From contig NC_057926.1 in NCBI RefSeq assembly GCF_018873765.1, positions 32,224,946-32,288,945 of the forward strand: a stretch of DNA of 64,000 bases. Direction: 5' to 3'. Within the stretch, counting starts at the first letter, position 1. The number at the start of each line of letters is the position of its first letter. The position numbers and the translations under genes are program-made. The stretch is from Telopea speciosissima. Lineage: Eukaryota; Streptophyta; Magnoliopsida; Proteales; Proteaceae. The notes beneath the pieces are model-generated. The model saw only the letters and a program-made list of their open reading frames with translations, had not been told where the DNA came from and searched no databases. Positions 2,507 through 50,900 of the stretch are shown here, one piece after another.

Positions 2507-3149
2507 GAAATGTGATGGAGATAGAAATGGGTGTGATTAAGGTTTCAGATTAAAAAGATTGTTGGCCAAGAGGGTTTGGGCTGACCGGAAAAAGAGGGTG
2601 GAGAAGATGGAGTGGCCAGAAGACTTAGAGGACTTAGAGGGGAGTTACTGCGGAGAAGAAGAAATGAATGAAGGATTGAGACGTTGGTTATTGAATAGCA
2701 TAGACGATGTGGACTCTTTAGAGGAGGGGGAGGAGGTAGAATTTATTGCACCTACGGTTCCCTGACCGGTGTAGTTCCCTAGTTCCTCTCAGAAGAGAGG
2801 TGTGGGGCCCACCCATCTTGAAGAAGCACAAGTTACCAAGGGATTATCAATTTAGGCTTGACTATTAATTGATTCCATTTGTTTGGGTTTAAAGTTAGAA
2901 CAGTCCTGTGCCAAGTTGGATATATTTTCCCGACAAAAGCCATTAACATATTTTCCCCACAATTAATTTTTTTTTTTTTAGGTAAAACATATTTTCCCCA
3001 CATTACTTTAGTGTCTCTCTTTCTTTCAAGCTCTCATACATAGTGACATGGCAGTTTCTCTCTCTCATTCCTATTTCTGTTGTTGATTTGAATTAAGCCT
3101 TCTGCAACTGTCTCCCATTCGAGATTTCTTTCAAAGTTAACCTACTGCA
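2507..3149. other. No gene; spacer beside the viral remnant
   Basis: A short plus-strand acidic open frame (2559-2765) has no recognisable domain and is probably chance. From about 2990 the sequence is related to 14,040-14,350 (shared CTCTCTTTCTTTCAAG and following text), which makes it one half of an old duplicated segment later split by the solo LTR. Confidence 0.5.
2962..2985 (-). repeat. Micro-insertion A (poly-T tail, 24 bp)
   Basis: A poly-T tract ending in AGGTAA lies between two perfect 17-bp copies of AACATATTTTCCCCACA (2945-2961 and 2986-3002). Read on the minus strand the insert is TTACCT followed by an A-tract. Confidence 0.85.
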
Positions 3150-3154
3150 ACCAC

Positions 3155-4940
3155 TGTTTGAGTTTAAAAATTACCGCAAGCGTACGGGTCAATCGTAGCT
3201 ACGGGTCGAACACGAGGAGATATACGCCACTCTATTTAACTAACTTAAAAGTAATGCAAAGTGAACCAAATTAAAGTGTTAAATTAAACTAATTAAATTA
3301 ATAAAAATTAATGCATCCTAACTCATAAACATCTAACAAAATTAAGGGATTAAATTGACGTCCTAACACATGAACATCTAACCTATCAAACTAACATAAA
3401 TTGGAAGAAATAACAAAACCGCAGCCACACTTCATAATCACATAAAAAGAAATAAGGGAATAAGTGCATCCACATACCACAACCATATAAAAAAAATAAA
3501 AGAAATTGAGGGAGAAGAAGAAGAAGATAGAGAGAGATAGAGGAGAGGGAGAATGAGATTGAGAGTTTAGATAGTAAAACCTAGATGTGCTTGCATGAAT
3601 GTAATTGAAAAGCTTGAATACTTGCATAAACTTACCATGGCCTCCTCTTCTAAATCTTCAAGTCTTGTCATCAACTTAATAACTTAGACTAGAAGGCTTA
3701 AAACCTAAACTAGAATTAAGAAATTACAACCCAATTAAAGACTTAAATTGAAATTAAAGCATAAACTAAACCTATTACAACCATTAAATGAAAATCAAAA
3801 AGCAAACTAGAACTTAGAAAAGCCAAAAATCACAACTTAGAAGGAGAAGAAGAAAAGAAATTTTACTAAGTGAATGAACTAAAAATTACACTAAAAACTG
3901 AATTAAAATTGAACTAGAAACTAACTAAAAACTGAACTAAAAAACTAACTTCTTACAAGCCAAAGGGCAAGGGGTATTTATAGGGGGAAGAGAGGAGAAG
4001 AGAGAAGAGGGAAGTGTAGGAGAAATATTCCCTAAGAAAAGAGAATATTCTCTTCTCCTTCCTCTTTTACAATGCCTTGAATCCTAAAAAAAAAAAGAAA
4101 AAAAATAGAAAGAAGAAGAAGAGAAGATTGTTTACATAGACCTTCTATTTCTAGAAAAGTAAACTTCCAATTCTAACAAGTGCTTCATTTTCTTTGTAAA
4201 TATCTTCTCCAAGCAATAAAATCAAAGCATCTTTGACTTTTCAACCTTCCATAGGTGAGAGAATATCTTTCAAAATAAATCTATCCCAAGTAGAATTTCA
4301 GAAGTGCCCTTGAGAAGTTGAAGGAGAGAGAGAGTAAGGGTGATGACTAGGATTCCTTCAAGAATAAATAAAATACCCATTCTATCCTTCAGAAAATGTG
4401 GAGCATGGGGTGCTTATATAGGCCTCACCATTGTGTTTCTTGCAAAAAATCACCCAAAATAGACCCAAATTTCGTCCAATTTGGAGTTCGAGAGCCCAAG
4501 ATATCTCAAGTTGAAGTTGGACTGTCCAGAGCCCTCCAAATGGAATCTTTCAGGTACAGGAAATATAACTTTTGGTTATTGCGTTAGGACCCCTAGAATC
4601 CAAACTTTTCCTTCACTTTATCCCCGGCCGACTGTCAATAATTACAAATAAATCCCTACAGACCATTTTCGTGCTTCGTTACGGAAACGGCCGTAACTTC
4701 TTCGTTTCAACTCGGAATCAAGTGCCGGTTGAACCGTTGCGAAGCTGACTTGATGGGCTACGCATCCAAGCCATTAACACCTCTAAACATCTTAAAAACA
4801 TTTCCTTAGCATCATCTCCTCCATTTTCACAAGAATTCACATAAAACCTGAAAAGCCCAAGAAAGCACCGAGTAACTCTGTCCAATGTGGTAAAATGTAT
4901 GCTTTATGCCCTAAGATTTCACACATAAATGTGCTCATCA
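3155..4940 (-). mobile_element. Solo LTR, 1786 bp, with 5-bp target duplication
   Basis: On the minus strand the unit begins TGATGAGCAC and ends ...CTCAAACA, the TG...CA termini of an LTR. It is flanked by perfect 5-bp repeats ACCAC (3150-3154 and 4941-4945). No coding region or second LTR is present, so it is a solo LTR left by recombination between LTRs. A TATA box is visible inside. Its 5' end matches the LTR that begins at 63,799. Sequence related to the unoccupied site occurs at about 14,210 (CTACCGTCAATTCTGAT). Superfamily is probably Ty3/gypsy by LTR length and style, but there is no coding evidence. Confidence 0.9.
3975..3982 (-). promoter_or_regulatory. TATA box of the solo LTR
   Basis: TATAAATA on the minus strand within CCCCCTATAAATACCCC, about 960 bp inside the LTR 5' end. 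The position suits an LTR promoter (U3/R boundary) with a long U3. Confidence 0.6.
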
Positions 4941-4945
4941 ACCAC

Positions 4946-5498
4946 CGTCAATCCGGATTTCCTGGGTAGCGCCTACTATCCTATTGTGGTACAAGATGTT
5001 GTTGCCTGCTAAGATCTTCTTATTACACCACTCCATCTCCCTCTACTTCTCTTATTCTGTATCTATCTAGGGCATTCCTCTATGTATCTGTATCTGTCTA
5101 CCTCTCTTATTCTTTTTTTTTTTTTTGGTAAACTACCTCTCTTATTCTGTCTCTATGTATCTGTGAAGTGAAATTTGTCTAATCGAGCATTTGCCTTCCA
5201 ACAGAGCGATGCAACGGGGAGCTTCACAGCCGCTGGATCAGCTTCTTCCTATCGGGCAACGGAATTAGCGAGAAAAATGGAAAACCCTTTTTTGAATTGT
5301 TCAACAATTGTATAGTAAACCAGGGTGAAGGTAGGGGTTTGGTTTGGTTAATCAAGGTCAGGATATGTGTGTAGATAAGCAAGGTTAGTTAATAATTAAA
5401 AAACATATTTAACAATGAGACAGTTTGACCACCTTCGCTACGTGTCCGGATTGTAAGGGGGTACATATAGGAACCTACACATTCGGGAACCTGGGAGG
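4946..5498. other. Spacer continuing the duplicated segment
   Basis: This continues the segment interrupted by the solo LTR and is related to 14,212-14,350 (CCGTCAATCC..., then CT-rich text). No gene is seen. It contains micro-insertion B. Confidence 0.5.
5114..5132 (-). repeat. Micro-insertion B (19 bp)
   Basis: Thirteen T then GGTAAA, flanked by perfect 16-bp repeats CTACCTCTCTTATTCT at 5098-5113 and 5133-5148. Confidence 0.9.
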
Positions 5499-5499
5499 A

Positions 5500-6649
5500 G
5501 TATAATCCCCATTGAACCTACCAACCTAGGACGCTGGTATTAAGACCATGGTTAGATATCCATATCTCCTTTGGATTGAATCTGTTCCAGAGCGCATGTT
5601 TCCACCCCTGCAAGAATCCTGTTTGCTCAGCCTCCCTTGGGTTAGTCGAACGCAAAATTCCTGCAGACACAAAAACACTTTTGCCTCCCAAAAAAAAATG
5701 CAATACCCTTATACCCCCGGCCAGTTAGGCCCATGGACAATTCAGAGAGGCCTGCGCAGCACAGAATAGGGAATGGGATATCGTCATTAGGCAGGGTACT
5801 ATAATTAGTGGTGAATATTATATTCTGGGGGGTAGGGGATGTGAGTGCATTAATAGGGGGGGTTAAAAATTCAAATAGCACATCCAACGACTGACATTAG
5901 ACAAAAGCAAGTACGGGTCGGCCCGAGACAACCCTCTTGAGACATTGTTTCTTACAAAGCATAGAAAATATCTTCTTAAAATAAAATATGGAAATAAACG
6001 AGGAAGGGGAAATCAAATCCAGAGCTTTGGAATTGAGAAGGGAGGCACAAAGATGTGCAATATTGGGGATGCTAAGGTGCTTTGTTCTCAGGACGAGGGG
6101 CCCAGATGCCCAGACATGCTTAGTCCATTCAGAAGATATAAAAAGATGCCATTGGGTTTCATCACGAGCACCACAGAGAAAACATGTAGGCTCGACCAGA
6201 AGCCGGTGATAGATAATATCCTGGACAGGTAAACCTGCATGTAAGACACGCCAAATAAACATTTTAAATTTCGGATTAAGTTTAAGCTTTCAGATAAAAA
6301 GCCACCAAGTGGACAGATGCTTGTTATGGTGATTAGTGCTTTGTAGATAAGAGCGAGCCTATCGAGTGGAGATAGTCCCAGTTTTTATCAAGGAGCATTT
6401 CCACTGATCCTCAGAGTCTGAAATAGGGAGTCCTGACATTTCAGAAAAACAGCAAGGAGGGAATAAATTGTCAAGTAAAGAAAAATTCCAACCAGGGTTA
6501 GAACTAAGATCACTTACCATTTGTACCGACGTGTGTAAGAAGGTTGGTGGAATAACATGGGTTGGTATTGTAGGCACCCAAGGATGGTTTGAACAGAAGG
6601 ATGTTTTGGCATTACCAATATCCTTGCACACAATTTTATCCCTTGTATG
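5500..6649 (-). mobile_element. L1-type LINE, 3' part (RT C-terminus, zinc-binding RT domain, RNase H)
   Basis: In order on the minus strand there are three pieces. First is the region after the RT core (VSDL..., WNF-LLDNLFPP, then LPIS..SEDQW, about 6590-6380). Next is the zf-RVT domain beginning FIWRVLHAGLP, with FLCGA-DETQWHLF (6262-5900). Last is an RNase H-like stretch with NPREAEQ...GWKHALWNRF (5703-5520). Several stops and frame changes are present. It probably belongs to the same insertion as 7385-10440, with the RT core lost and a MITE between. No poly(A) end was identified. Confidence 0.75.
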
Positions 6650-6920
6650 TAGGGGTGTAAATGAATAGCCGAAACCTGTTTTCGTATCCGTGTCCGTATC
6701 CATTTAGTAGTATTCGAATCCGTCGAAAAGCTAAATGGATGGGGATATGGATAGGCTATAGCTATCCGAAAAGCTATATTTACATGTAAATGGATAAAAC
6801 ATCCGATCCGTATCCGCGTCCGTATCGGTTTAGTAGTGTCCGAATCCGTCCGAAAAGAATTTTGGATGCGGATGCAGATATAGCACTATCCAAGCCGAAT
6901 CCGATCCGTTTACAGCCCTA
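6650..6920. mobile_element. hAT-type MITE, copy 1 (271 bp)
   Basis: Terminal inverted repeats run TAGGGGTGTAAATG ... CGTTTACAGCCCTA. The 8-bp flanks are CTTGTATG (6642-6649) and CATGTATG (6921-6928), seven of eight bases identical, as expected for hAT-type insertion. The inside is built of short GGAT/ATCCG-rich subrepeats. There is no coding capacity. Confidence 0.85.
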
Positions 6921-6928
6921 CATGTATG

Positions 6929-7384
6929 TAGCGTGGTACCGAAAAGGTATCGGCACAGGATGATATCAGTGACGAGAAAAATAGGTATGCATTGCCCGAT
7001 ACGATATCGATACTTAAAACCATGATCTCTTCGAAGAAGAAAAATGAGAATGAAATGTTGAATAAAAATTGAATAAAATAGAAAATTGAAGGAAAAATAA
7101 AAAATAAAAAACACCGAGTGTAGCAAAAACTAGGAGAGAAAAGAAGTGGGTGAGTGGTTTCATTTTGTACTATTTTAATGACACAAAATTGGGTAAAAAT
7201 TAGAAGATGAATGGTAGATTAAATAAGTTAGCAGGTTAATAGGTGAAAAGAAGGGCAATCTGGGTATTTAAAAACATAAGGGCAGAAGGAGATGTCAAAG
7301 TTTAAAAGTAGGGTAGTATTAGAAAAGAAGTTTAAGGTAGGGTTTTAATAAATATAGGCTAAGTGTAGGGTAGTGATAGTAATT
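6929..7384. other. No gene; AT-rich filler inside the LINE region
   Basis: Contains a TATCG/GATACG-rich stretch (6940-7015) and simple AT-rich sequence. It occupies the place where the missing RT core of the LINE would be expected. Confidence 0.5.
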
Positions 7385-7754
7385 GTCCCTTATAAGAAAC
7401 ATTACAGAGGCTAATGGGCCTGAAGTCATTAGCAGTGTTAGCATCATCATGGTTGGGGATCATACAAAATGGGGGTATTCAAACAACTTTGAGGAAGCGA
7501 CCCAGTGGAAAAAGTGAATTCACAAGCCGAATCACATCAGGGTCAATAAGGTCCCAAAAAGTTTGATACAAACTGTGCCTGAAACCCATCCATTCCAGCG
7601 GCTTTGAAGGCCACCATAGAAAAAAACTACTTGGCGGATTTCACTTCCTAAAGGGGGCGAGAGGAGAGATCGATGATCCTCCTAACGGATCACTGAGTCA
7701 AACAAACCTCCAATGACATCAGAGTCCAATGAAAACACTTGTTAAAGGATTTCA

Positions 7755-8359
7755 CAAAAGGAGAGGTGTGGATGACAATGGAATTGTGATCCGAGCCCGG
7801 CGAAGGCAATTTGTGCATGTGAGACAAAGGAAAAGAAGAAGCAAGGTAGGGTTAGCAAATGGTCGGTCCAGACATTGTTTAATTAATTTGGGAGGGCGTT
7901 GTTTATTAGTCCAAGTAAAGGGGGTTCCAGGGAAAGACAAAGGTTGAAGGGAAACGCCCATTCACAAGTGTCGATATAATCATCTAGTCCAACACTCCCC
8001 AAAATGTAGGGCGGTCAAAAGTGTGAGGGGGAGCATATGACACAGACAGCAACCAATGGGATAGTATTCAAGCCGTTGAGAAGGATGGAAATAAAATGTG
8101 CATGGAGATGAAGCAATTGGTGTCCAAGTTTAGCAAGAACCCAAAGCCGTCCCTTTAAACCCCTTACCCCAGTACTACGTAAAGACGCCACCGAAGAGTA
8201 CTTGGAAGTAAGATCCTTACAACAGCAATCATCATAATTCACCACCTTGGTTTCAAAAAGGAAAATTCTATCACGAGAGAATTTAGTTAAATGGTGGTGA
8301 AGACAGCGGGGTCTGAAAGGATTATTTAAACCCCTAACGTTCCAAGAGAGAAGAATCAT
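7755..8359 (-). pseudogene. LINE ORF2 endonuclease domain
   Basis: Begins with the hallmark LSWNVRGLNN and continues to IFLFETK, where plant L1 endonucleases have the catalytic ETK. After a frame break it resumes at LSFPGTPFTWTN and ends near SDH-equivalent text. The enzyme would nick target DNA to prime reverse transcription. Frame breaks make it non-functional. Confidence 0.75.
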
Positions 8360-9239
8360 GATGGCCCTAAAAAATAGTCCGTAGACAAACAAGGAAAACA
8401 TACAGGTACAGAACAGAAGCACACCAAACCTAAAACAGAAAAAAGAGCATGCTAAAGCAATAAGATTAAATAAACAAGAATTACGGAAAATAGGCAACAA
8501 AGAACTACAGTAGGCAAACAGTACAACCAAGACGAAAGTAGAACGCAAGAGATAACTAAGAATTAAGAGTAACCTTTGGGGGTGAAATCCACGTCTCAAA
8601 TATCGGCCTTCCAGTATAAACCAGGAAAGGGAGAGGCAAAGGAGAACAATAGAGAAAATATTCCACAATTGAAAGACAAGAGAATAATGATGAGAGAATG
8701 AGTAACTTACCTGGGCTTCGGCGGAAAGATCATTGGGGTCACTGAGATAGTAGGTGGGGATGGAGGAGTACACAGGAGGATGAATAGGCAACTCGTCGTT
8801 ATAAGAGACCGAAATGGCAGAAAACCAATCTTGAAGCATAGCAATGAGCAGTTGGGGATCAGAGGACAGTTCCAAAACATGGGAAAGAGAGTCCTTCAGT
8901 TTGTCAAACTCCGTGAGCACAGTGGATGGCCATGCAGGAAAAGTTATTTTGCGCTTCTTGGACACAGGCAGTGAGGTCTGAGTACCCACAAAAATTGCAC
9001 CTGAAGACAGAGCCTGCTGAGAATATTGCACGCCCAAAGAGCCAACATTAGCGATGATCGTGTTGTGGAAGAAATTCACTGGTTCAGAAACTTGATGGAA
9101 GGACACTGTAGGAGGGGCATCAGACAACCGAGTCGGCACTAATCTGGGGCTCACCGCATCAAGAAAGTTCCATTGCAACTCTTCAGCCATTGCAAAGAAA
9201 TTAGTATCAAAAGTGCCAGTTGAATCCCTCTGGGTCAGC

Positions 9240-10086
9240 ATAGGTGGTACAGTAATGGCCGAAACTGAAGAATCCTATACAAAAGCCTAGTTGATAGGTG
9301 TTTGGTCGAAGGATTTCCTTTCGCCTTCATTTGAGACCTCCAAAGCAGAAGAAGACCGTTCAGCCCTAACAGTGCTTCGCTCATTAGGCACCGAGTAAAT
9401 ATTGACTTGTCTAGGAGGAACCGCAACACGCCGGTAAAATCCAACCTGGGGTAGGTTAGGATCAGGGGCCCCCTTTAGATAAGGACAATGACCGATGTCA
9501 TGACAGATATGTCTACAGCACTCACAAAAAAGCAGCAGTTCATAACAAATCTCCATAGGGTGTCCAATACCCAACTCGTCCCGGATCTTAGAGGAAATAC
9601 TGACAGACCGGCACTTCTTAAAAGCAATTTTGACTCTGGTAGTCCCCTGTGGTAGTCCCAAAACACCAAAGTTCAGTTGAACCTCAAGTACCTTACCAGC
9701 ACACGAACCGCTTGGCGAACCAAGTTGGCCAAGAAACACTTATCAGGTATGTCACTAACCTGGGCTCAAATCTGGACCGTTTCCCTTTTATACCAAAAAT
9801 ATGGGTCATGAGGAGGGTGCTTGAACAGTTGTATCAAACACGTATTGAACCACCATGGTGCTAACGTCAGAATTTGATCCCTTTGAGTCGAAGTTTGGAA
9901 TTCAGCATAAAAACATGCCTTCTCAAAACAGCAAATAGTAATTACTCCAAGAGGCTCCCACAGCCTACCGAGAAAGTTGTCAAGAACCCCCCTTTGAGGT
10001 TTGGGAAAACCAATAGTAAACCCATAAAGAGAGCGAGCTTCCACGTCAGGGGCATCGACTGGGCAAGAGTTCAGTGCCAAATCCAT
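9240..10086 (-). pseudogene. LINE ORF1-like RNA-binding protein (DUF4283 / zf-CCHC_4)
   Basis: The first part (10,086-9,766) reads like the DUF4283 domain found in plant L1 ORF1 proteins, with GRLWEPLGVI and TLAPWWFNTCLI. The next part (9,739-9,287) has CECCRHICHDIGHCP, a degenerate CCHC_4 zinc knuckle. Frames change between the parts, so it is broken. ORF1 products bind element RNA and DNA during retrotransposition. Confidence 0.72.
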
Positions 10087-11182
10087 ATATAACCCGGTAA
10101 GGCCTCATTCAACCGGGAACTGCGACGGTGACCAAAATGATTCGAAGACCGGTGATAGGGACGATGTCGAGAATAAGAATGCGTAGAGGCCATGAGAGTG
10201 CTCAACCAAAATCAGGGAAGCAAAGCTCTAGAGGAGCAACGCAAGCTTCAGTACACAGCCGTAGGACACCGCAATCAGTGGGGTCAACAGGGAAGCAGAA
10301 CCGATTAGTGCAAAAGTGGAGGAAACGGCAGAGGAGAAGGAGTACAGAACACTGAGAAGAAAAGGGGAGCAAAGAGAGTCCAAAGCGACAGAGAACCTTG
10401 GAATACCACAAGTGCCTTATATATTGGAAAAGGGAAGCAGTTTATCAAAAAAATAGGGTTTTCAATGAACTACTTTGTGTGACACGTCATGTCATGTAGG
10501 GTTGTGATGGATGACATGTCCTACACTGCATGATTACCCATGTGTATGAAGAAGTGTTTGTAGTATGAGAGTACAGGAGATAGTAAAGTCACTAATGTGA
10601 GAGAGGGAAGGGATAATTGAAATGGTAAATTATGTATGACCCCCTGGTTTTTAATCGAAACTCATATCAACCCCCAGTTCCCATCATGAAAATATTCGTA
10701 TAAGTACCCCCAGAATTGTGACATGTGGCACTACCTGATCTAATGGATGAAATAATCAACCTTAACCCAATGTAACTCACCTAACATTCTCTCTCCTCCC
10801 TCACTCCTCCCCATCCATCGTATCTCTTTCTTTCTTCATTGTTCTTTCTTCTTTTTCAGCAAACAGGACGTGACACCTGCAACTCCTCTATCACTGTCAG
10901 TCCAACCGCCCCACTCCCCTAGTTTAAATCCAGACCAGTTTTTGTCTTCCTTCTTCTTATTCCCACCTTTCCCTCCCTCACATTAGCCAATAATAGTACC
11001 GGTTCTCTTGGCTTGCTTTATTACCGGTAATGGCTTCTTTAAGTTTTTATTTTGACCATCTCCACTTAAGACTCTCTCCTCTTTAAATGGGAAACACAGG
11101 TTGTTTGGCATCCCATGACCCTCTGCCTCTTCTCTCCATTTCATCCACTAGGTACACAGAAACCCATCCCATGGAAAGGTAA

Positions 11183-11945: not shown

Positions 11946-12341
11946 GAGGTTCCCTGCAATTTGAATGGCAAGGCGTAAGGTATTTTCAGTCAAGGATGGA
12001 GGTTGCTCCAGCCCTTTTGATCTCTCCTCAGAAATCTTCAAACTCTCCTACATTATAAACCATAGCTGAAGAAGACGTAGATGATTATGATGATGATGAC
12101 TCTTAATGAACGTTTCTCTTCACTTCAACTTGAAACATGACATCAGGTTGAGCCATAAAGTTATTTTCCACATTATTCCATTCCTGGTCCCCATGTTGTG
12201 AAGAGACTGGGTACGTGGCTTTGGTCAGTCTAAGACGTAGAGAATTTTACCAACAAAAAACAATTAGACGCACAAAATTACGAAATTTATCTATTAACCC
12301 AACAATAATTACGAAATTGAATGTTAGTAAGTCAGTCCATC

Positions 12342-12359
12342 TTTTTTTGTTTGATAATA
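12342..12359 (-). repeat. Micro-insertion C (18 bp)
   Basis: TTTTTTTGTTTGATAATA between perfect 17-bp repeats TAGTAAGTCAGTCCATC at 12,325-12,341 and 12,360-12,376. Confidence 0.88.
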
Positions 12360-13285
12360 TAGTAAGTCAGTCCATCCGCTACCGTTGGAAATGCACCAAA
12401 ACCACGTGTGTAGCTATGATTAGGCCTCGAGGGCCCGAGGCTATAGAGTCATAGGATATAGAACTTGAGTAAAAATACCCTAATTTAAAGATAAAGATTG
12501 AAAAAGTACTTAATCACATAATTGTAAACGGGTATAGGAGGAGGTGAATGTAGACGTACGTGGGCATACACAATCAACTCACATTCGTTCAGATGGAACA
12601 TTTTTTAAATTTAGATTCTATCTGAACGACTTTGAGTTGAGGACGTAGCCTTCAGTAGGTGAACATTACCCCAACATAACCCAAAAACTGCACAGACTCC
12701 TCCTTGCTGCACAAACTTACAAAAGGTAACGTAAGAAGCACACAGAAGTATGCAGAACTTTCCCAAAAGAAGTGAAAGAGACTGTTAGATATGTACAGTG
12801 AATTTCATTGCGTGATTATCTCCTCTCAATAGGAGAGTATATATACTGATACCCAAATTCCATGATCTCCACTGTAGTTATACAAGGTAATGAAACACAT
12901 AAAATATGGAAACTACAGTAGGAGATATTCACTGAGATAACATTCTATATCACATGTCATACCGATTCTAGCTTGCCATTCATAGAGAGATTTTATATCA
13001 CAGGTGAGATATTCCAACCAGATTTTTGCCATATATGATCTTCAAGAGAGAAAGACATGTAAACCCTTGATAGAGACAAAAGTGGACCAAACCAGTATGT
13101 AAGCACAAAAACACAGAAAAGTTGTTACCCAAAAAACAAAGAAAAAAAACAAACACACAAAGCGATGCAGAACATTCCCTTAAAAAGTGTAAGACACAAA
13201 AGCTTCGTAGAGAAAACAAAAGTACTGCAGAATTGGTCAGCCCATCAAAGTTGTAAAGAGGAGCATATAAAAGGGGAGTGGGGAA

Positions 13286-14622: not shown

Positions 14623-14834
14623 CATTTTCACCCTTCCTATTTTTAAGTTATTAGGGAGTCCTTATCCCAAAAGCCACTTACCATGCAACATCCGATATTT
14701 TCATTTAGGGTTTTCCTCTCCAATTTCGTCTCCAAAGCGAATTGATTATGTATGTAGGCATTTAATGTGCACTTGGAGAAGATAGAGAAGGCCATCAAGT
14801 CATAAGTGTCAATCAAATCAATGTTGTAGTGTCT

Positions 14835-14852
14835 ATTTTTTTAGGTGAATAG
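14835..14852 (-). repeat. Micro-insertion D (18 bp)
   Basis: ATTTTTTTAGGTGAATAG between perfect 12-bp repeats GTTGTAGTGTCT at 14,823-14,834 and 14,853-14,864. Confidence 0.85.
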
Positions 14853-15071
14853 GTTGTAGTGTCTTCAGTACTCTGCATCGTGCTATGTTGTGATACAACT
14901 GCACAACTATGTATCGCTTGAAAAAATCACAACTCTGAATCATCCCAAGTATGGACCGCAAGGTTTCCTCCTCACTTTAAGGGAACTGTGTAAAGGCAAA
15001 AAGCAAAAGGGAAAATGGGCATTTGTATTACGGGTCATGTTTGGGTATTACGGTTTTCCATTAATTGTTTA

Positions 15072-15892: not shown

Positions 15893-17205
15893 GGGTATTA
15901 GATGTCTTCTATCACAGTTAGGGTTTTGAATGAATTGTCATTATTCCAAATGGTACTTTTTTGTTTTGGTATAAGGCATAGACACAGTAATTACCCAATC
16001 AAAGGTTAGAAGGCACGATTTTCTTCAACATTTTATATATGTTGTTATTTTTTTTATACTTACACAGAGTAAATCATAACCAATGATAGGAGACACCCAA
16101 TATCAGGAGTTCTGTTTGAAAGAAGGTACATGATCAGATGACCGATTGTTGCTATGAAGAGACTGTTACTTCCAATGTGAAGTTTTAATTAGTTGATGGT
16201 TTTTATTGAGATTTTGGAACGCATAAGCAATAAACAAGTTTACTGTTGAACTTTTTTTTTATGAAACTGTAATCACACAACTTTATTGTTCAACTTGATC
16301 TCCTGGTTGTTACTAAATTTGTGGTTTAGGGTAACAATAACCGGTGTACTTGTAATGAAATATGTATGTAGTGTTACGTAAGCCATTTGCAGTCTTGTAT
16401 ATCGATCGAATTTTCCAATTTTGCAGTCAACTTCATTACATTAATCGGTTGACTTGTCAGCGTTGATGGGTTCATTTTTATAAGATTATTGTATGAAAGA
16501 CTAACAAATTTCTTGTAATTTACGACATTGATTTATAGGTTGTTTTTATATCAACAGAATGACCTTATAAGTAATAACATTTCATACAGAACAAAAATTT
16601 TGGCAGATCCTGTTGAAAAATATACAATTACATATAGGCTGGAATTCATAGAAAATCAGTCATGTGCACCCCCTAAGATTACGTAACAAAAAATATTGCA
16701 ATACCCCATTTCAATGGTTATAATGATACACAATAATGAATTATATAGATATATAATTGATATACGAAAACCCAAACAACCTGTTGAGACCTGTCATACC
16801 CAAACCACAACTACTAATTCCATATATCCTATTGACATAAAAAATATCATTACACCCCTTGTAGACATTCAAACACATACATAACTTTACTAACCAATAT
16901 GATATGTTCACCACAGTGAGACTACGAAGATAACCGATAATTTAGATTCGACTGACAACTATTAAATATTGTATACACATAACTCAAAGTAACCGTTACA
17001 CCCATGACACATATACACACTTACTAATTACATATATATAATACATACAAAAAATTGACCCTAAGTTCCCTAACAACCATACACAATCAACGTAGAAAGA
17101 TATATAGACATCATATTAAAAATAAATCGTAACACCCTATTGACCCATACAACAAGTACTAATGGTAATGTATATATACAATATGGCTTATTTAATAGTG
17201 TAATA
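15893..17205. other. AT-rich stretch without a gene
   Basis: No coding signal. Contains a candidate micro-insertion at 16,253-16,281 and text near 16,440 (CGGTTGACTTGTCAGCG) related to the 17.6, 21.1 and 28.3 kb repeats. Confidence 0.5.
16253..16281 (-). repeat. Candidate micro-insertion (29 bp)
   Basis: Eight T followed by 21 bp, between TTTACTGTTGAACT (16,239-16,252) and TTTATTGTTCAACT (16,282-16,295), 12 of 14 identical. It lacks the usual GGT next to the T-tract, so it is less certain. Confidence 0.5.
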
Positions 17206-17544: not shown

Positions 17545-18225
17545 CACCTTACATGTTCGAGAATGGATACGGCCACCTTCATATCAACCAATATACGTGG
17601 ATTTATTAGACTGGTCAGCAATGATCGGTCGATTGGTACAAATAATAGATCGACTTATGACTTTTGAACATCACCCAAGTAACCTGATCGGTTGATTGTT
17701 ATGATTAATTGAAACAAAATAAATTTGGGTTAATGCTAGAAATCACATCATACAACTACCGTTATTTTTTTACATTATAAGGCTGAGTGTTACTCTCATA
17801 AACCTTGAGAATATTTTTCAAATCCTATAAAATTTACTTTTTTTTTTTGGTAGAATCCTACAAAATTTACACATCCAACAAAGGTTCATCTTTGGGGACA
17901 TCATTGGCCACGATCCATAGTTATAATCTTTGTACTTGTGATTTAAATAATTTGACTCCAGTCTCGAGTTGATCAAACCATTACTGTTCACCCTAAAAAT
18001 ATAAAGGAAAATTTAAACCTTGTTTCTTGCGTTATTGGAAGAGTAGAAAAGACATAAATTGATTGCATATCGTTCATTTTCAATACTTGTCAGCCCATTA
18101 ATATTTGGGTAAAAAATTTGCCGCCAATGTCCGTTCCCTATTTATTATTCATTACGAAAAAAAAAACAATACCCTTTTTTTATTTGACAAATCATACTAA
18201 ACGACGACTCTCCGTTGTAAGTTGG
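17545..18225. repeat. Left member of a diverged direct repeat flanking the coiled-coil gene
   Basis: Related along its length to 21,030-21,660 in the same orientation. Shared blocks include ATCGACTTAT-AC-TTTGA-CATCA, CAAATCCTA, GGCCACGA, TTATTGGAAGAGT and AAACGAC. It carries micro-insertion E, which the right member lacks. Confidence 0.7.
17838..17853 (-). repeat. Micro-insertion E (16 bp)
   Basis: T-tract plus GGTAG between AATCCTATAAAATTTAC (17,821-17,837) and AATCCTACAAAATTTAC (17,854-17,870), 16 of 17 identical. The paralogous site near 21,318-21,340 has a single, uninterrupted copy. Confidence 0.87.
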
Positions 18226-21029: not shown

Positions 21030-21660
21030 ATGTTGTATGTTGCATACTGAATATGCCCACCTTCTTATAACCCATAAATAGGTAGGTTTATTAGAGTAGT
21101 CATAACTCAGAACCCATTGATGGGTAGACTGGATGGCCATAATACATCGACTTATCACCTTTGATCATCAACCAAGCATCATAAATCGGTCGACTGATAG
21201 GGTTCATTTTTAAAATATCATGTTGGTTAATGGTTCAAAGGACATCGTACTTTGACCACGTTGACACATTACAGTACAACCCTACCATGTTATCTTCGTT
21301 ACCTTGTAAATTTTTTTGCAAATCCTACAACATTTACCGATGCCACAAAGGTGCATGTTTGAGCACATCATAGGCCACGAATGCTTTATCTTTGTGAGTT
21401 TAGATTTGGATTTGTTGACCAAAGAAATAAAGGGAAATTGAACACTTGTTTTTTGCTTATTGGAAGAGTCAAATAGTCCTAAATTCATTACATATCGGTC
21501 AAGTTCAAAACTTTTTTTTTTTTGGTAGAAGTCATGTTCAAAACTAGACAGTGATATTTTGGATATGTCACATCACCGTACATGCTTCATAGCAGTCATT
21601 GCTTTAATACTAATTTTATTGTGAATAGCATAATAAACGACTAATCTGCATTGTTATTTG
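21030..21660. repeat. Right member of the diverged direct repeat flanking the coiled-coil gene
   Basis: Same-orientation relative of 17,545-18,225 (see that entry). It carries micro-insertion F, which the left member lacks. Confidence 0.7.
21513..21530 (-). repeat. Micro-insertion F (18 bp)
   Basis: T-tract plus GGTAGAA between GTCAAGTTCAAAACT (21,498-21,512) and GTCATGTTCAAAACT (21,531-21,545), 14 of 15 identical. The left paralogue near 18,072-18,092 has the site unoccupied. Confidence 0.87.
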
Positions 21661-22693
21661 CCGAAGAGAACAAATGGTGCAAAGTTGAATCCGATCTTCA
21701 TAACGGTGATTCTGGTACTGTTTGATAAGGAACTCTTTGTTTTTGCAGTAGCGGCTAAGGCAGCATCAACCTCTCTACATTTTTTTTTTTAAGAAATAAC
21801 ACCCAAGAACAAATACTTGACTGAACATTTTTTTTTCGATGATTTATATATGGAAAAAAAACCTTTGTCATTGGAAAATAAATTTTTTTGTTTAGAAATA
21901 AAAGAAAAAATAGATACAAGTAATGTTTATTTCGATGATTTATATATGAAAAAAAAAGCAAACACCTGCATTTACGCATACAATTAGTAGTGGAAAGGAC
22001 ATGTTGCGTTGGGCTCAATGAAGAGGAGATTGAGATTTGATCATTTATTTGGACACAGAACTCCATTGGGAGTTGGGCATACGTAAAGAAAGTTGTGGAT
22101 TATTTAGAAGATCTTTTGATGATTACATTTCAGTTCCCAAGATATACAAAACCCAACAAAGTAAAGTGAACAAGTCAATCCCAACAACCCTCATTTACTT
22201 CGTCACAATAGCTTGGTGGCTTTGATTGTAATCCATGTATGTTAATATATATTTTTTTTTTGGTGAAATTTGTAATCCATGTATCTATTCTATCTATTCT
22301 ATCTATCTATCATATGATTATAACTATCATATTTCATAGTATCTACCATTCAATAATATCAACAAACCTATTACCAAAAACAAAATTTAATTATCAATAT
22401 ACCCAAATAAATACCCTTCATTAATCATTTTCCTGCTTAGTAGTTAAGGTATTACTGTATCCACTCCCTCATTCTCTCCCAAGAAATGGCCTTCATTAAT
22501 CGTGACTAGTTTATTCTCTCCCAAGAAATAGCCTTCATTAATCGTGAGTAGTGTGTACAGTGATATTTTCCTTTTTTTAGGTAAGTGGATTTAAATTATT
22601 TAAGAAGTTAAGAATGAATAGTTATAGTGATACGACTATTACTTCAAAAAAATGGACTCTTCCATTCTTTCAAAAAAATAATTAAAAAAAAAA
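21661..22693. other. AT-rich spacer without a gene
   Basis: Contains two copies of TTTCGATGATTTATATATG followed by an A-run (about 21,835 and 21,931), and micro-insertion G. No coding domain is seen. Confidence 0.5.
22241..22269 (-). repeat. Micro-insertion G (29 bp)
   Basis: GTTAATATATA, a T-tract and GGTGAAAT lie between perfect 15-bp repeats TTGTAATCCATGTAT at 22,226-22,240 and 22,270-22,284. Confidence 0.85.
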
Positions 22694-29309: not shown

Positions 29310-29329
29310 GTAGCCAAACAAAAAAAGAG
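29310..29329 (+). repeat. Micro-insertion J (20 bp)
   Basis: GTAGCCAAACAAAAAAAGAG between TTGAAGTAAGGGTATT (29,294-29,309) and TTAAGGTAAGGGTATT (29,330-29,345), 14 of 16 identical. Other array units (near 28,216 and 28,948) have the site unoccupied. Confidence 0.82.
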
Positions 29330-30691: not shown

Positions 30692-30708
30692 TTTTACCAA
30701 AAAAAAAG
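30692..30708 (+). repeat. Micro-insertion K (17 bp)
   Basis: TTTTACCAAAAAAAAAG between perfect 16-bp repeats AAGTACCAATTTAAGT at 30,676-30,691 and 30,709-30,724. The sister repeat at about 30,393-30,408 has one uninterrupted copy of the same 16 bp. Confidence 0.93.
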
Positions 30709-30853
30709 AAGTACCAATTTAAGTGTATATATATCAATAAGACTTTTCGAATTCCAAGAAGATTAGCTAAGTTTCAATGACACCTTTTGTCAAAAGTAAT
30801 TATTCTTTCTCACCTTCTAATGGATTTGGTCATTTATTGCGCATCTTTTACCA

Positions 30854-30874
30854 ATATTTTGTTTTGGTACAAAT
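30854..30874 (-). repeat. Micro-insertion L (about 21 bp)
   Basis: ATATTTTGTTTTGGTACAAAT between GCATCTTTTACCA and GCATCTTACCA. The sister repeat has GTGCATCTTACCATTAAC uninterrupted at about 30,528-30,545. Boundaries are uncertain by a few bases. Confidence 0.75.
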
Positions 30875-30980
30875 GCATCTTACCATTAACTACAACATAA
30901 AAAGTTGTGGCGATGTGACGTGTGAGAAATCCGATATATGTTGGAGTAGATGGATCGTTTCTCATGTTCCTTGGATTTAA

Positions 30981-36508: not shown

Positions 36509-36509
36509 G

Positions 36510-39209: not shown

Positions 39210-40909
39210 TCATGAAAGGTTTGTTAGAGGTGTACTTGTTAGTGATGTCAAACAATGCTTATAGTTTTGGGGGGGACAATAATTCCACTGGAATACGTCC
39301 CAGATTATGATACTTTACATGTGTGTTTTGTAACATTTTTTAAGTAAGTGTTACTTTAAATTTATGGGTTTATCAGTTAATATCTGTGACAAAGATATAG
39401 GTGTTGTTCTGCTAGACTTTGATTACATGAATAAATTTAAATGTAATATGTGTACATCGCAATTTCATTTCCTCTCTGTCTTTACAACAGTATTCTGATC
39501 ACTTTTTCATAGTATGTTCACTTAATATTTGCTGTGATGTCATTTACATGTGCCTAGATGTCATAAACTGTGGATGAACTGATGACATTTTTTTAACTTT
39601 ATTCGTGATTTTTAAACCACACATGATTATACCTAATCTTAACACATCAATTGCTCGGACTGATATTTGGATTCTTATAAGGGTAAAAAGGTATTGGACT
39701 CAAGAGTCGACTATAATCAAAGAACTGGGTTTACATTATCCTTGCTTTGACTTTCTTTCGAGCATTTAAACTTGTGAAACTTAAGAGTTTACAAGTCCAA
39801 TCCTTTTTGTTATTCCATTTCTTTTTCAACGGTTATTTGTACTGTAATACTATTCTATAAAAATCAAGAAAGAGGGTTTTTTTACAAATTCATAACTTAC
39901 CTGCACCTGATGAACTAAGGGACTAAGTTTATACTCTTACAAACTTTGTCCCAAGTGGGAACAGAGCAGTTCTGGGCCTTTCACTGGGATTTGGATCTTC
40001 CATCTACCCGATCCATGATCACACAACAGTTATCAATGTACAATGGTACACATAGTGGCAATCCAAACCCTTCTTTCTTAAGCCAACTCGATAATCACAC
40101 AAATCAATACCTGCTCCACCTTGTCTATTTATGTGCTCCATTTCCCCATATGTTTGGACAGCACCCACTAGTCTGTATGTTCGGGAAGGGGTAGGGTGTC
40201 CATTTATGCTCCCCTTCTATTACAGGTGCGTGGGAGAAATGACAATGGACTACAATATATTGAATGTTTATTTTTTTACAGACTTCAACATTCCCAGTAA
40301 ACATATATTCGTCATCTACTCGTCAAGTTCTGTGCATATTGAAATATGGCATGTGTTGTAAGTGGCTTGATCGTACAAATTTGGTTTCTTTACTTTCATG
40401 TTCCTTGTACTCTTTCATATATGGGGTTTATGAGTTGGGGTATTGAATTAGGTCATGTTGGGGCTTCTCTAACACCCTAAACTTTTATACATTCATACCA
40501 GGGTTTCGAAACCTCCAATGAAACCTTTTTATCTTTTTTTCTAAACACCTCCAAGGAAACCTTGACACTTAATATTTTGAACACCAGGATAGCAATTAAT
40601 CTGTGAAAGACTTTGATTAAACATCATTTCTGATAACTATGAATGAATATCCTCCATTATTTTGACCAATGTGATCATCTAATAACTAATTTAATGCCAC
40701 AATTGCTGAGTGCATCACATAACATCTTCGAAATTGCTCTATTCACGAATCCATGATCCGACTTATCTACCCATTGCAAAATGTAATTGGTCTCATATAT
40801 GTACCCTACAAATCGTAAGGCAGATTTCGTTGATTGTGAGGTTGGCTGTTCGCATCACCTGCATATTCAGTAACCTACATAAAAGTAACCAATTAGTTTA
40901 TTAAAAAAG
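39210..40909. other. Downstream spacer without a recognisable gene
   Basis: No ORF has a domain that I recognise. Probable 3' UTR of the B3 gene, then unique-looking AT-rich DNA. Confidence 0.5.
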
Positions 40910-43439: not shown

Positions 43440-45599
43440 ACAAACCCCCCTGTAAACAAAGATTTCTATGCACTTCTATGTATCAGTATTTTCACCTTTA
43501 ATCAACTCAAATGAATCATTACAGTATACAGAACAGAGTGAACCTGTAACTTATATAAGATAAATTCAGTTTTAAGCCATTTCAACGACTTTATTGAACA
43601 AAAACAAATTGGATCAGTTAAGGTATCAACGTCTACAAATTGGAACAACAAAGTCAACTGCCGGAACTTATCAAAAAATAAATAAAAATATTCAACTGTC
43701 GGAATAAAGCTAAAAAAGAACTGAGTTTTAAGCTATTTCAACGATGAGTTCTGGTATGAACTGGGAAGAAGAAAATCAACTGCCGGAATGAAGCTCTAAA
43801 TGAACTGACGGAATGAAGTTCATTAATATGCCACACTAGCTAGGAGCAAGGGTACAACATACTAACCTCTGCAAATGTGTTGAATGAGAACCTTGTCGGT
43901 GGTGAAGAATGTCATAATGGATACCAAAGGAAAACAATGGCGATGAATCTAAGCTGCAAGGGTATAACGATGAAAATATGGACAGCAAATCAGATGCCTG
44001 ATGGTCTGCGCCTACAAACAAGATGCCAGAGTAGAACAATCAGTAAAAATGAAGAAGAAAGGAGATGCCGGGTCCGTGCGTGAAAGTGAATAATGAAAAA
44101 GGGAAGATGATGTAAAACCCTCTTTTACCCTTTCCCACCATTACGTGATATGACGTTTTACAAAGTCGGTTCAATTCTACTAAAAAATTAAACGGTGTAA
44201 TTGACCAATTTGACCTACTATACAAAAAACGGGAAATGCAATTCAACTGTCAGGCTGTCAGAGTAACACATAAATGCTCAACGCATAATCGACGGCTCAA
44301 AAGAAAACGTTTGAAATGGAAGGTTAGATTTCAACAAAGTCTTTCCAGCTTATTACCACGCACGTCCCGCTACCGGTCACCCAATGAGTTATTATGCGGG
44401 TATTGTTGTGTTTTTTTTTTTAATTAAATTAATTACTTTCTATGATAACACCTAGTAATTAGTTTTTCATAATTGGACCAAGTATTGGATACAAGTGATA
44501 GCTATAGTGTCTCATATCTTTTCATCAATGAAATTTCTAAATTTAGAGTGATATTCACATTGGTAAACTTGATTTCTGTTCCTCCGTTTATCACATTTGG
44601 TATCTAACCAAAACAAACCAAAAAAAAAATGTGTATCATATTTGGTACAGGAGAAATCTAAGGAGATGGTCGTCCAAGTCTAGAACGAACCAGCTAATTT
44701 GGCACATCGGATGTTTTGAGATTAGGGGTATCCTCGGTTCGATATCCATGGTTTCCAAATTCTTCTAGGAGCAGACACTTAGGGTGTGTTTGGTTGAACG
44801 TTTTTGAGGAATCGGATTCAACGGGATCTAGATTCCGTATTTTTTATCGTGTTTGGTTTTTTAGAACACGATTTTGTGTTGGATTCCAAGAATTCACAGG
44901 AACCCATTTTTATGTGTATTTTTAGAATCCATTAGAATTCACCCCAAGGGGTGAATTCTGAAATAAATCTGTGGGAATCCACCTTGGTATTTAAGGATCA
45001 AAATCCACGCGACTCCATCTATCGAGATTGCCTTTCCTCCAAAACCCGACGTTCGCACAGGAGATCAAGCTCACCTTCGAATCCAACCTGAGAAAGAGAG
45101 CTCGCCTTAAAATCCAACCTCAAGAGAGCCTTTTTGTATTCTCTGTGTAATCTCCTTGCTGGAGGGAGCCTCTATTTCATGAGGTTAACTCGCTTCCCCC
45201 ACCCCCTTTCCCTCTTTCCATCCTTTCTCCTTTTTCCTCCCCTTCATGGGTAGTGAGTTCTTTTGCGCTTTCTTGAATATAATTGCTATTCACCTAAAAA
45301 ATATTTTGAGAGAGTGTAATGTGCCTAATGGGTCCCACTATAATGTATTGTCGCTAGATTGGGCTAGTCTAGGATGAGATGGGTTAAAGGGTGTGATTTA
45401 ACGCATTCCATCAGCTCAGGAGCTTTTGGCGTATCAATCAAGTAGTTAACAAAGAGATTTTTGTTTCTCGGTGGGGGTGGGGGCCGGACTCACCTATCCA
45501 TCTTAAACTCTTATTCTAAAAAGAATGTTAGCGACATAAAATAAGAGACACACTAAATTATCCAATCCTTAGACCAACCACATTTTATTTATCTTTATA
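43440..45599. other. Spacer upstream of the FRS pseudogene
   Basis: 43,650-43,830 holds four spaced copies of a CAACTG-CGGAA motif. 44,603-44,633 is a micro-insertion. 44,780-45,000 starts GGGTGTGTTTGGTTGAACG, the style of many plant MITE ends, but no partner end was found. No gene is seen. Confidence 0.45.
44603..44633 (+). repeat. Micro-insertion M (about 31 bp)
   Basis: TCTAACCAAAACAAACC, an A-tract and TGTG lie between TATCACATTTGGTA (44,589-44,602) and TATCATATTTGGTA (44,634-44,647), 13 of 14 identical. Confidence 0.78.
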
Positions 45600-45813: not shown

Positions 45814-45976
45814 TTAGTTCTAAGTCCTAGTATGGTTCATATTTTTGCTTCTTTTTGCTAGGGGTGTATTTCCCCTATCCCTATTGATTTGTATTCGTCT
45901 GGGTATGCCTGGACGATAAATACTTTGTATTTTTTTCCCGTGCCTAATATTAATCTTGCTGACCTTTAGCCAAAAA
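45814..45976 (+). mobile_element. 5'-truncated LINE 3' end (163 bp)
   Basis: Ends CTTGCTGACCTTTAGCC then seven A, which is close to the 3' end of the LINE at 58,659 (CCCTGACCTTTAGC then A-rich). The flanks AATTACGCTTTGAT (45,800-45,813) and AATTAAGCTTTAAT (45,977-45,990) match at 12 of 14 positions. No coding sequence remains. Confidence 0.65.
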
Positions 45977-46110
45977 AATTAAGCTTTAATCATGACAAGC
46001 CACATTGTGCATCTTGTTTATTTCAGTTCTTTTATTTTGATAAGAAAATGGAAAAGATATATTTAAGTTCCTATGCTCAATTTAACTTGAACTTGCAACT
46101 AATCCCTCAG

Positions 46111-49430: not shown

Positions 49431-49433
49431 TCA

Positions 49434-49549
49434 AGATCCTCTACTTTCGCCTGCCCGAACGCCTTACCCGAACATGGGTGAGGCGGTCTTTACTACCTTG
49501 TTGTGTGTAGGGCGCACGGTAGTACCGGGCAGGTGGAAGTAGAGGATCC
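49434..49549. mobile_element. Fold-back MITE-like element (about 115 bp)
   Basis: GATCCTCTACTTTCGCCTGC is mirrored by GCAGGTGGAAGTAGAGGATC (one to two mismatches). It has the same style as the 23.7-kb element (GGATCCTC ends). No target duplication was recognised. Confidence 0.65.
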
Positions 49550-50900
49550 AGATTCCTTCTGTTGATAGCAGATTCATTTGTATTCCTTCATTGATAGAAA
49601 GAAATTCTCTTGCAAAGATCAGGTTTGTAAGCCCATCTTAATGTAAGCACAGTTTAACTAAGGCCATTGTGTACGTACTGATATGCCATGTGAAGGTTTT
49701 TTTTTTTTTTTTGGTCTAGTCCTATCAAGGGCCTATAGAGATCAACTAGTTGGGAATTCTTGAACACAAGACATGCCATCGGCCTCCTGCCTCAACAAGC
49801 AGAGTCCATTACATCACAGATCATTGTGTCCTTCTGTTGTTAAGTACTCTTGTTTGATAGAGATCAGCAAGATTAAATTAAAGAGAAAAGAAATAAAATA
49901 ACTGTTTAACGTCTAGACATACCCAAACAAATACAAGAAACCATTAAACTTGATGGACGAAACACCAACTACAATAATGACTAAGATGAGAGACTATCTC
50001 ATCATAACACAATAGGGGAAAAGCGGTATCTAGTCCTATTGCTATTTTTTATTTTTTTTGATAGGTTGGTCCTGTTGTTAAATACTCACTTTTCTACAAA
50101 AATGACAAAGAAAAGCTCCCATTTAATGGCGTTTTACACTTTAGCAGCTTTAGACTAAGCCCCATTGTACAACCTCTTTTAAGGGCGTTTTTCGGAAAAT
50201 GGTACATACATGGAATCAATGAAAAAATATCGCATTACAATTCCACGCAACTTAAAAATGTAAACGTGGTTATAGGTTTCAATGTTGTGTTTTTAGTTAA
50301 ATCATTTTTGGCGGCGATCATAAATGCCACTGTAGACCTTTCTTGTAGTGAGGAATGCAACAACATTCTCTAGGTTTATCTCTCTCCCAATAGGAACAAA
50401 GATTCCATTTCATAGGGGGAGGAAAGAGATAAACACATGACAACTCTGATGTAGGCTAGACTCCCAGGCAGAAAATGATATAGGTACTATAGATCCCTTC
50501 ACCATTTACCTCTCGGATTGAGTTGTGGAAGGATCATGAATGATGTGGTAAAGTCAGATTGCCCACAATCTCTTAGAGAGGTTTACCCTTTGGGACTTCT
50601 CCTATCAAGTATACTAGTTCAAACATGAGGGTTAACTCTAGTGTTGCCGAAGTCGCAACTGTGAAGGTCAACTGACTTGCTTGATTACATGAACCATACT
50701 ATGCATTTCTGAACAATAAGCTACAAAAACTTGCCAAACATCAGTCCAATCAATGCATCCCTTTGAGGAGAATATAGAGTTAAAACTGATCCTGCATCAG
50801 GATCTAAATCACTACTTCAATGGAAGAAAATATTTAACTTTTTACGAGTAGGAAATAAATTAACACAATGGAAGAACACGCAAAATATTTTCCTTGATCC
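49550..50900. other. Spacer without a recognisable gene
   Basis: Has a long T-run with GGT at about 49,697 (no flanking repeat found) and the candidate micro-insertion at 50,045. No coding signal. Confidence 0.45.
50045..50068 (-). repeat. Candidate micro-insertion (24 bp)
   Basis: A T-rich tract plus GATAGGTTG between GTCCTATTGCTA (50,033-50,044) and GTCCTGTTGTTA (50,069-50,080), 10 of 12 identical. Confidence 0.5.

What the first reader, a model, noticed from the sequence alone, without database searches (positions are those of the whole stretch)
2945..50080. A population of ultra-short retroposed tails: 16-31 bp inserts between 10-17 bp direct repeats
At least 13 sites (2962, 5114, 12342, 14835, 17838, 21513, 22241, 25133, 26555, 29310, 30692, 30854, 44603) and two weaker ones (16253, 50045) share one structure. 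Each has a poly(A) or poly(T) tract of about 7-14, one side joined to a few bases, and the whole lies between direct repeats, several of them perfect over 12, 15, 16 or 17 bp. Read on the A-tract strand, most inserts end ...ACC, ...CC or ...ACCT directly before the A-tract. Direct repeats of this length plus a 3' A-tail are the marks of target-primed reverse transcription by L1-type machinery. The insert is almost only the tail, so reverse transcription stopped within a few bases. Annotation tools would call these low-complexity. About one per 4-5 kb would make this a major, hidden source of small indels.
Basis: partly seen in the sequence, partly recalled or inferred. Interest (0 to 1): 0.88.

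Follow-up and report, generated by a model that had tools for sequence, protein, structure and literature searches.

The report
Ultra-short LINE insertions in waratah
In this plant genome, jumping LINE elements have left many tiny inserts that are only the last few letters of the element plus its A-tail, and such inserts are easily overlooked as low-complexity DNA.

Summary
The window is very probably Telopea speciosissima (823-Mb assembly). It holds 14 inserts of 16-31 bp: an A-tract preceded by 5-10 bases, between 12-17 bp direct repeats. Of 192 A/T tracts, 15 (13 places) have such repeats, against 0.15 with resampled flanks. Seven sites have a paralogue in the window over the junction; all show the empty site, though 21513 weakly on its right flank.

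Genome-wide, TTCTACC-A10 occurs 1108 times against 21 for the reversed pattern. Of the first 100 listed, 56 have TSDs (swap control 1.0), with inserts of 14-29 bp in 54. The part before the A-run is most often 7 nt. Longer copies share the 3' end, one with an RVT_3 frame. A 31-bp insert (L038) carries enough to name the template. TSDs begin with RA.

Best explanation: target-primed reverse transcription by L1-type LINE machinery that usually stops about 7 nt into the 3' UTR. Human 'simple poly(A) insertions' are the known parallel. A predominant, position-defined class in a plant looks new. The cause of the stop is unresolved.

The parts
2945..3002 (-). Ultra-short insert TTACCT-A13-TTAAT (24 bp) in 17/17-bp TSD
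5098..5148 (-). Ultra-short insert TTTACC-A13 (19 bp) in 16/16-bp TSD
12325..12376 (-). Ultra-short insert TATTATC-AAAC-A7 (18 bp) in 17/17-bp TSD; its end resembles the LINE end CTCTATC-AAACAA at 49850
14823..14864 (-). Ultra-short insert CTATTCACCT-A7-T (18 bp) in 12/12-bp TSD
17821..17870 (-). Ultra-short insert (T)CTACC-A11 (16 bp) in 16/17-bp TSD; empty paralogue near 21325
21498..21545 (-). Ultra-short insert TTCTACC-A11 (18 bp) in 14/15-bp TSD; empty paralogue near 18085, homology weak to the right
22226..22284 (-). Ultra-short insert ATTTCACC-A10-TATATATTAAC (29 bp) in 15/15-bp TSD
25123..25177 (-). Ultra-short insert TTTTTTCACC-A11-CA (23 bp) in 15/16-bp TSD; empty site in F-box paralogue near 26525
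26539..26586 (-). Ultra-short insert (TT)CTACC-A13 (18 bp) in a ~15-bp TSD with mismatches; empty site in F-box paralogue near 25178
29293..29344 (+). Ultra-short insert GTAGCC-AAAC-A7 (17 bp) in ~17-bp TSD; empty paralogues near 28950 and 28225
30676..30724 (+). Ultra-short insert TTTTACC-A9-G (17 bp) in 16/16-bp TSD; empty paralogue near 30395
30840..30886 (-). Ultra-short insert ATTTGTACC-AAAACAAAATAT (21 bp) in ~12-bp TSD with a 2-bp indel; empty paralogue near 30530
40511..40563 (-). Additional insert GTTTAG-A7-GATAAA (19 bp) in 16/17-bp TSD; no ACC
44589..44647 (+). Ultra-short insert TCTAACC-AAAACAAACC-A10-TGTG (31 bp) in 13/14-bp TSD
16234..16296 (-). Weak candidate: 23-bp insert ending TTTCAT-A7, 17/20-bp repeat
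50031..50080 (-). Weak candidate ACCTATC-A8-T-A6 at the 5' edge of a LINE insertion
58641..59972 (-). Longer 5'-truncated LINE: 1296-bp insert with RVT_3 (above cut-off) and zf-RVT (26.6 bits, just under the 27.5 cut-off), 3' end CTGACCTTTAGC-A6, 17/18-bp TSD
49834..50087 (-). LINE-type 3'-end insertion: 222 bp, end CTGATCTCTATC-AAACAA, 15/16-bp TSD
45885..45979 (+). 3' end homologous to the one at 49.9 kb, ending CTGACCTTTAGCC-A7; no TSD found
5897..10104 (-). Decayed LINE: zf-RVT (2.8e-11) and a weak DUF4283 match (23 bits, cut-off 27.2) upstream on the same strand; 3' end not located

Best explanation
These are insertions made by L1-type LINE machinery. The endonuclease nicks the target before RA. 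The A-tail of a LINE RNA, or of a non-autonomous RNA with the same 3' end, is used to start target-primed reverse transcription. Synthesis stops about 5-10 nt (typically 6-7) beyond the A-tail, inside the terminal ...CTTTCTACC or a related end. The short cDNA is joined at the second nick, mostly 10-18 bp away, giving TSD-TTCTACC-A(n)-TSD. Shown here: the TSD structure, its excess over chance, empty paralogous sites, the 3' end shared with longer LINE-like copies, the nick preference, and the predominance of very short products for this end. Inferred: that the stop is abortive reverse transcription at a template-defined point (hairpin, bound protein, RNA end or enzyme transition), and that a plant L1 ORF2 protein is the enzyme.
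For: Excess over chance in the window. Empty sites for the 7 of 14 sites that have a paralogue over the junction. Genome count 1108 v 21 reversed. TSD score 10 or more in 56 of 100 loci, swap control 1.0; 54 of the 56 have inserts of 14-29 bp. Among the 59 with score 9 or more and insert 35 bp or less, 39 are compatible with a stop at exactly 7 nt and 9 need more than 9. TSD start AA in 28 of 46 (null 11.5), +1 A 35 of 46 (null 23.6), +2 A 37 of 46. Longer copies with the same end: L021, 206 bp, TSD 17/17, and L020, 1582 bp, TSD 17/17; L039, an RVT_3 frame (E 2.7e-17) about 100 bp upstream of CTGCTTTCTACC-A17. L038: 31-bp insert AATGAATAGCCCTGCTTTCTACC-A in a 19/20-bp TSD. CTGCTTTCTACC-A8 occurs only 11 times genome-wide although it asks for two fewer A. 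In-window LINE ends with TSDs are TTTAGC-A and CTATC-A.
Against: The human L1 consensus TT|AAAA is not met (TT before the nick 7 of 46, null 7.4; AAA 8 of 46, null 5.4), and T at -1 is only mildly raised (27, null 21.1). The 100 loci are the first listed, all on one contig, and include duplicates (L041/L056/L083, L076/L077, L095/L096, overlapping L042/L043), some of them inside the 46. 41 of 100 did not reach score 9 with an insert of 35 bp or less; by eye about 12, perhaps 15, of them are longer copies, the rest undetermined. The pattern demands TTCTACC, so shorter heads are hidden and the peak at 7 is partly a censoring edge; a search with a shorter head did not complete. In-window LINE ends differ from TTCTACC. 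The 1.58-kb family (L020, L033) shows no Pfam domain in the three frames tested and L039 has no TSD within its 3-kb locus, so the partner LINE is inferred. No conserved hairpin was found beside the end.
Confidence: 0.85

Rival explanations
1. The inserts come from polyadenylated tRNAs: N73-CCA plus A-tail, with reverse transcription stopping at the acceptor stem.
For: Most heads end ACC followed by A, as a tRNA with discriminator A would; a stop at a double-stranded stem would explain the short head. Discriminator usage is recalled, not from a call.
Against: The bases before ACC are T-rich and repeatedly TTC or TTT, unlike GC-rich acceptor stems (recalled). Longer copies run into LINE-like 3' ends. 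Variants GCC, TATC and ACCT occur. No comparison with the tRNA genes of this genome was made.
Confidence: 0.04
2. The template is a short RNA (a cleaved LINE 3' fragment, or a small RNA ending UUCUACC plus A-tail), so the RT copies to its end rather than aborting.
For: The 5' boundary is sharp: 39 of 59 compatible with exactly 7 nt, subject to the censoring noted. The total length varies mainly through the tail.
Against: Heads of 8-13 nt also occur (18 of 59), and no such RNA is known from these calls. Products of 31, 48, 206, 222, 1296 and 1582 bp show that longer templates are used too.
Confidence: 0.3
3. Double-strand-break repair or polymerase slippage: filler DNA and A-tract expansion between fortuitously duplicated ends.
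For: Short insertions flanked by duplications can arise by staggered-end fill-in (general knowledge).
Against: The same head recurs over a thousand times, and with TSDs in 56 of 100 sampled. TSDs cluster at 10-18 bp (53 of 56), the TSD start is non-random, and empty sites lack the A-tract.
Confidence: 0.02
4. Chance: A-tracts that happen to lie between short repeats.
For: A/T tracts are common (192 of length 6 or more in the window).
Against: 0.15 expected v 15 observed; 1.0 expected v 56 of 100.
Confidence: 0.01

Closest known systems
Human 'simple poly(A)/poly(T) insertions' by L1 endonuclease (PMC3219598; passages read)
   Same: Only a tail, or nearly so, attributed to L1 machinery; read there as severely truncated Alu, L1 or processed pseudogene
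   Different: A handful of disease alleles: three of 48 in the survey cited there, one of 18 in NF1. Tails in the NF1 set are 60-178 bp. Here a ~7-nt head is recurrent and the class predominates for its 3' end
5'-truncated plant LINEs, e.g. poplar Celine (PMC11288735; passages read)
   Same: A-tail, TSDs of 10-30 bp averaging 15, DUF4283 in ORF1, 5' truncation
   Different: The passages describe full-length and truncated copies; I saw no insert of only ~7 nt plus tail, and did not read the whole text
Sadhu non-autonomous retroposons of Arabidopsis (PMC2848041; passages read)
   Same: No conserved reading frames, A-tailed, TSDs of 7-18 bp, 5'-truncated partial copies called abortive retrotransposition
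   Different: Partial copies there are recognisable Sadhu fragments; the passages mention no tail-only class
Plant L1 LINEs with 3' ends shared with SINEs (PMC3747384; passages read)
   Same: A 3'-terminal sequence shared between LINEs and non-autonomous elements; here CTGCTTTCTACC-A in L039-type and L020-type copies
   Different: The maize/sorghum case shares ~50 nt with a conserved hairpin; here about 12 nt were seen and no conserved hairpin shown

Membership tests
L1-clade LINE (TPRT) insertion | Variable-length target site duplication of about 7-20 bp | tested here: met
   12-17 bp in the window; 10-18 bp in 53 of 56 genome loci
L1-clade LINE (TPRT) insertion | 3' A-tail next to one TSD copy | tested here: met
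L1-clade LINE (TPRT) insertion | Empty site with one TSD copy and no insert | tested here: met
   The 7 of 14 sites with a paralogue over the junction; 21513 weak on the right; paralogues, not alleles
L1-clade LINE (TPRT) insertion | Endonuclease nick preference TT|AAAA (mammalian L1) | tested here: not met
   |RA instead, mild T at -1
L1-clade LINE (TPRT) insertion | Insert is the 3' end of a LINE coding for APE endonuclease, RT and RNase H | tested here: inconclusive
   Shared CTGCTTTCTACC-A end with an RVT_3-bearing copy, L039; endonuclease and RT domains of that copy not seen; a 7-nt head cannot be assigned to one family
Human-type simple poly(A) insertion | Tail-only insert with TSD attributed to L1 machinery | tested here: met
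   here with a recurrent ~7-nt head
SINE | Pol III promoter (A and B boxes) in the element | tested here: not met
   Inserts are 16-31 bp with heads of 5-10 nt, too short for it
DNA transposon / MITE | Terminal inverted repeats and fixed TSD length | tested here: not met
   TSD length varies 12-17 bp; no terminal inverted repeats seen by eye in the inserts

The most novel reading that the evidence does not exclude
In this plant lineage the usual outcome of LINE retrotransposition is not a truncated LINE but an abortive product about 20 bp long with a fixed stop some 7 nt beyond the A-tail. Tens of thousands of such inserts form a hidden class of retroposons and record in vivo where L1 reverse transcription passes, or fails to pass, from initiation to elongation.
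Probability: 0.45. Interest if true: 0.82.

Novelty: new variant of a known kind. Interest (0 to 1): 0.7.

Why it matters
LINE activity in plants is usually counted from recognisable copies. If most events leave only ~7 nt plus a tail, insertion rates, and the share of small indels due to retrotransposition, are underestimated. The stop position would be a genomic record of an early step of target-primed reverse transcription that is hard to see in vivo, and it can be tested in vitro with a plant ORF2 protein. The inserts, with clear TSDs and empty sites, might also serve as phylogenetic markers in Proteaceae.

Tried and rejected
tRNA-end origin: considered because of ACC-A, set aside on the T-rich heads and on L038. 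Hairpin stop: three in-window LINE ends were folded; one showed a short 5-bp hairpin next to its tail (z -2.45 for the whole 81 nt), the other two were no better than shuffles. The L007, L020 and L021 ends (no shuffles) show a possible GGGC/GCCC pairing about 11 nt before the tail in two of three. Left open. Canonical L1 nick: with 14 window sites only a weak A preference; clearer as |RA with 46 genome sites. Two-class size claim: one search shows six tract-bearing pairs spaced 32-120 bp in the window; I judge five (26758, 29985, 33243, 33279, 43642) tandem or paralogous and leave 49969 unclassified. 160 kb elsewhere gave 36-, 39- and 48-bp inserts, the last a LINE-like end. So I claim predominance of short products, not a gap. 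Rfam and tRNA scans of the window found nothing. Literature: the listings showed no paper on a tail-only class in plants; most of those papers I did not open, and the library holds only open-licence papers. PMC9599045 (passages) gave nothing relevant.
Full report
Origin. The F-box-like/TPR_27 gene at 24.3 kb is closest to Telopea speciosissima proteins, and the entry marked as the window's own lies on a contig of the same length as a Telopea hit. The window is G000:C11:32224946-32288945 of an assembly of 822.9 Mb. Pfam finds LINE (zf-RVT, RVT_3), MULE, copia gag, neprosin and TPR_27 matches.

Observation. The sites were read directly and laid out on the A-strand. Each is TSD - 5-10 bases ending mostly in CC - A-tract - TSD. 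Of 192 A/T tracts of 6 or more, 15 (13 distinct places, the weak 16253 included) have flanking repeats scoring 11 or more, against 0.15 with resampled flanks and 3.6 at random real positions. A scan not tied to tracts found 49 repeat pairs at spacing 6-120, against 2-6 in five simulations; 13 of the 31 spaced 45 bp or less are these inserts, 16253 included. Sites 26555 and 30854 are below both thresholds because of mismatches or an indel, and are kept on their empty sites.

Empty sites. Sites 25133 and 26555 sit in two F-box gene copies, and each copy is empty where the other is filled. 17838, 21513, 29310, 30692 and 30854 also have empty paralogues in the window. In a systematic search with joined flanks, 5 of these 7 (17838, 25133, 26555, 29310, 30692) are matched by 15 bases or more on both sides of the TSD. 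For 21513 and 30854 the match ends 6-9 bases past the TSD; one search shows more for 30854, while 21513 stays weak on its right. 2962 has only a right-flank match, which says nothing. The other six of the 14 had no paralogue.

Source in the window. A 1296-bp minus-strand LINE with RVT_3 (and zf-RVT just under its cut-off) and an 18-bp TSD ends CTGACCTTTAGC-A6. A 222-bp 3'-end insertion ends CTGATCTCTATC-AAACAA, and a homologous end at 45.9 kb ends CTTTAGCC-A7. These resemble the short heads GTAGCC, TTATC and TTTACC but are not identical to most heads.

Genome. TTCTACC-A10 occurs 529 + 579 times against 10 + 11 for the reversed pattern. I took the first 100 listed places, all on C1, none dropped. 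TSD score was 10 or more in 56 of 100; the swap control, with downstream flanks exchanged between loci, gave 1.0 per 100. Of these 56, 54 have inserts of 14-29 bp. The two longer readings are L002, which also has a 14-bp TSD giving a 16-bp insert, and L097, which is CT-rich. Among the 59 with score 9 or more and insert 35 bp or less, the head is 7 nt in 23 and 6 nt in 10 (the swap control at score 9 is 2.7 per 100). Allowing for shared bases at the junction, 39 are compatible with exactly 7. Because the pattern demands TTCTACC, shorter heads are hidden. In the window, where no such demand was made, heads are 5-10 nt with mean 7.0 (lengths entered by hand).

Longer copies. CTGCTTTCTACC-A8 occurs 11 times genome-wide. 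Nine of the 11 end in ATGAATGAATAGCC-CTGCTTTCTACC or a close variant, including L030 = L021 (206 bp, TSD 17/17), L029 = L020 (1582 bp, TSD 17/17) and L038 (31 bp, TSD 19/20). L031 and L039 have a different upstream sequence, and L039 carries an RVT_3 frame. Other longer copies among the 100 (for example L046, L067, L069, L080) have yet other upstream sequences (by eye). Several LINE-like families therefore share a terminal TTTCTACC-A, consistent with 3'-end recognition, and an autonomous/non-autonomous pair is suggested.

Nick. In 46 sites (score 11 or more, insert 30 or less; a few are duplicates), normalised for tail A, TSD position +1 is A in 35 and G in 8, +2 is A in 37, AA starts 28 (null 11.5) and -1 is T in 27 (null 21.1). 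This is a relaxed preference, not TT|AAAA.

Density. Twenty 8-kb stretches fetched around seeds (160 kb) held 7 unseeded inserts at score 11 or more, of which L017:5615 is doubtful because its repeat is 34 bp long (the eighth row, L016:986, is a seed). A further 51 kb held one clear case, L039:2750 TTTCCACC-A9, and one doubtful. That is about 8 in 212 kb, or some 30,000 genome-wide by simple scaling, a rough inference from stretches that were not drawn at random. The window, chosen because a reader noticed the sites, is about five times denser.

Mechanism. Shown: real insertions with TSDs and A-tails; a 3' end shared with LINE-like copies; a nick preference; a strong excess of products ending within ~10 nt of the tail. 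Inferred: L1-type ORF2 protein as the enzyme, and an early stop in reverse transcription. The part before the tail is less variable than the tail (CV 0.22 v 0.32), which hints at a template-defined stop, but 14 sites cannot settle it.

Literature. Tail-only L1-mediated insertions are known as rare human disease alleles (PMC3219598, passages). Plant 5'-truncated LINEs and Sadhu elements are described (PMC11288735, PMC2848041, passages), and shared 3' ends in plant L1s are reviewed in PMC3747384 (passages). No paper on a tail-only plant class appeared in the listings.

Noticed in passing
window 35017-38240 and 55261-55499: Two 1.49-kb direct repeats, 98% identical, separated by a 239-bp stretch that also occurs alone at 55261-55499 at 98.7% identity; looks like a retroelement with long terminal repeats and a tiny interior.
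   Followed up: no
window 24169-26984: Tandem F-box/TPR gene copies (82% identical) holding two of the inserts at different places.
   Followed up: partly
window 45759-45825: Perfect 18-bp direct repeat around a 31-bp insert TCTTGAGCTCTATC-AAAG-ATAGCAATTACGC, resembling the LINE end CTCTATC-AAAC but without an A-tract.
   Followed up: no
window 49697-49840, minus strand: Possible degenerate tRNA-like SINE ending GGACTAGACC-A16; the string ATAGGACTAGA recurs at 50.03 kb.
   Followed up: no
TSDs at 5098, 29293, 44589: The TSD end nearest the head carries GGTA, complementary to the UACC of the template, in 3 of 14 sites; seen after the fact and not tested.
   Followed up: no
L042 / L043: Two TTCTACC-A inserts share one target, with the TSD unit present three times in a row: two events at one place, or a duplication.
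   Followed up: no
L010:2585: 48-bp insert ending GTTAATGAAATATTTTTATC-A10 in a 13-bp TSD, a LINE-like end of intermediate length.
   Followed up: no
window 2945-50080: The A-tail lies on the minus strand in 11 of 14 inserts.
   Followed up: no
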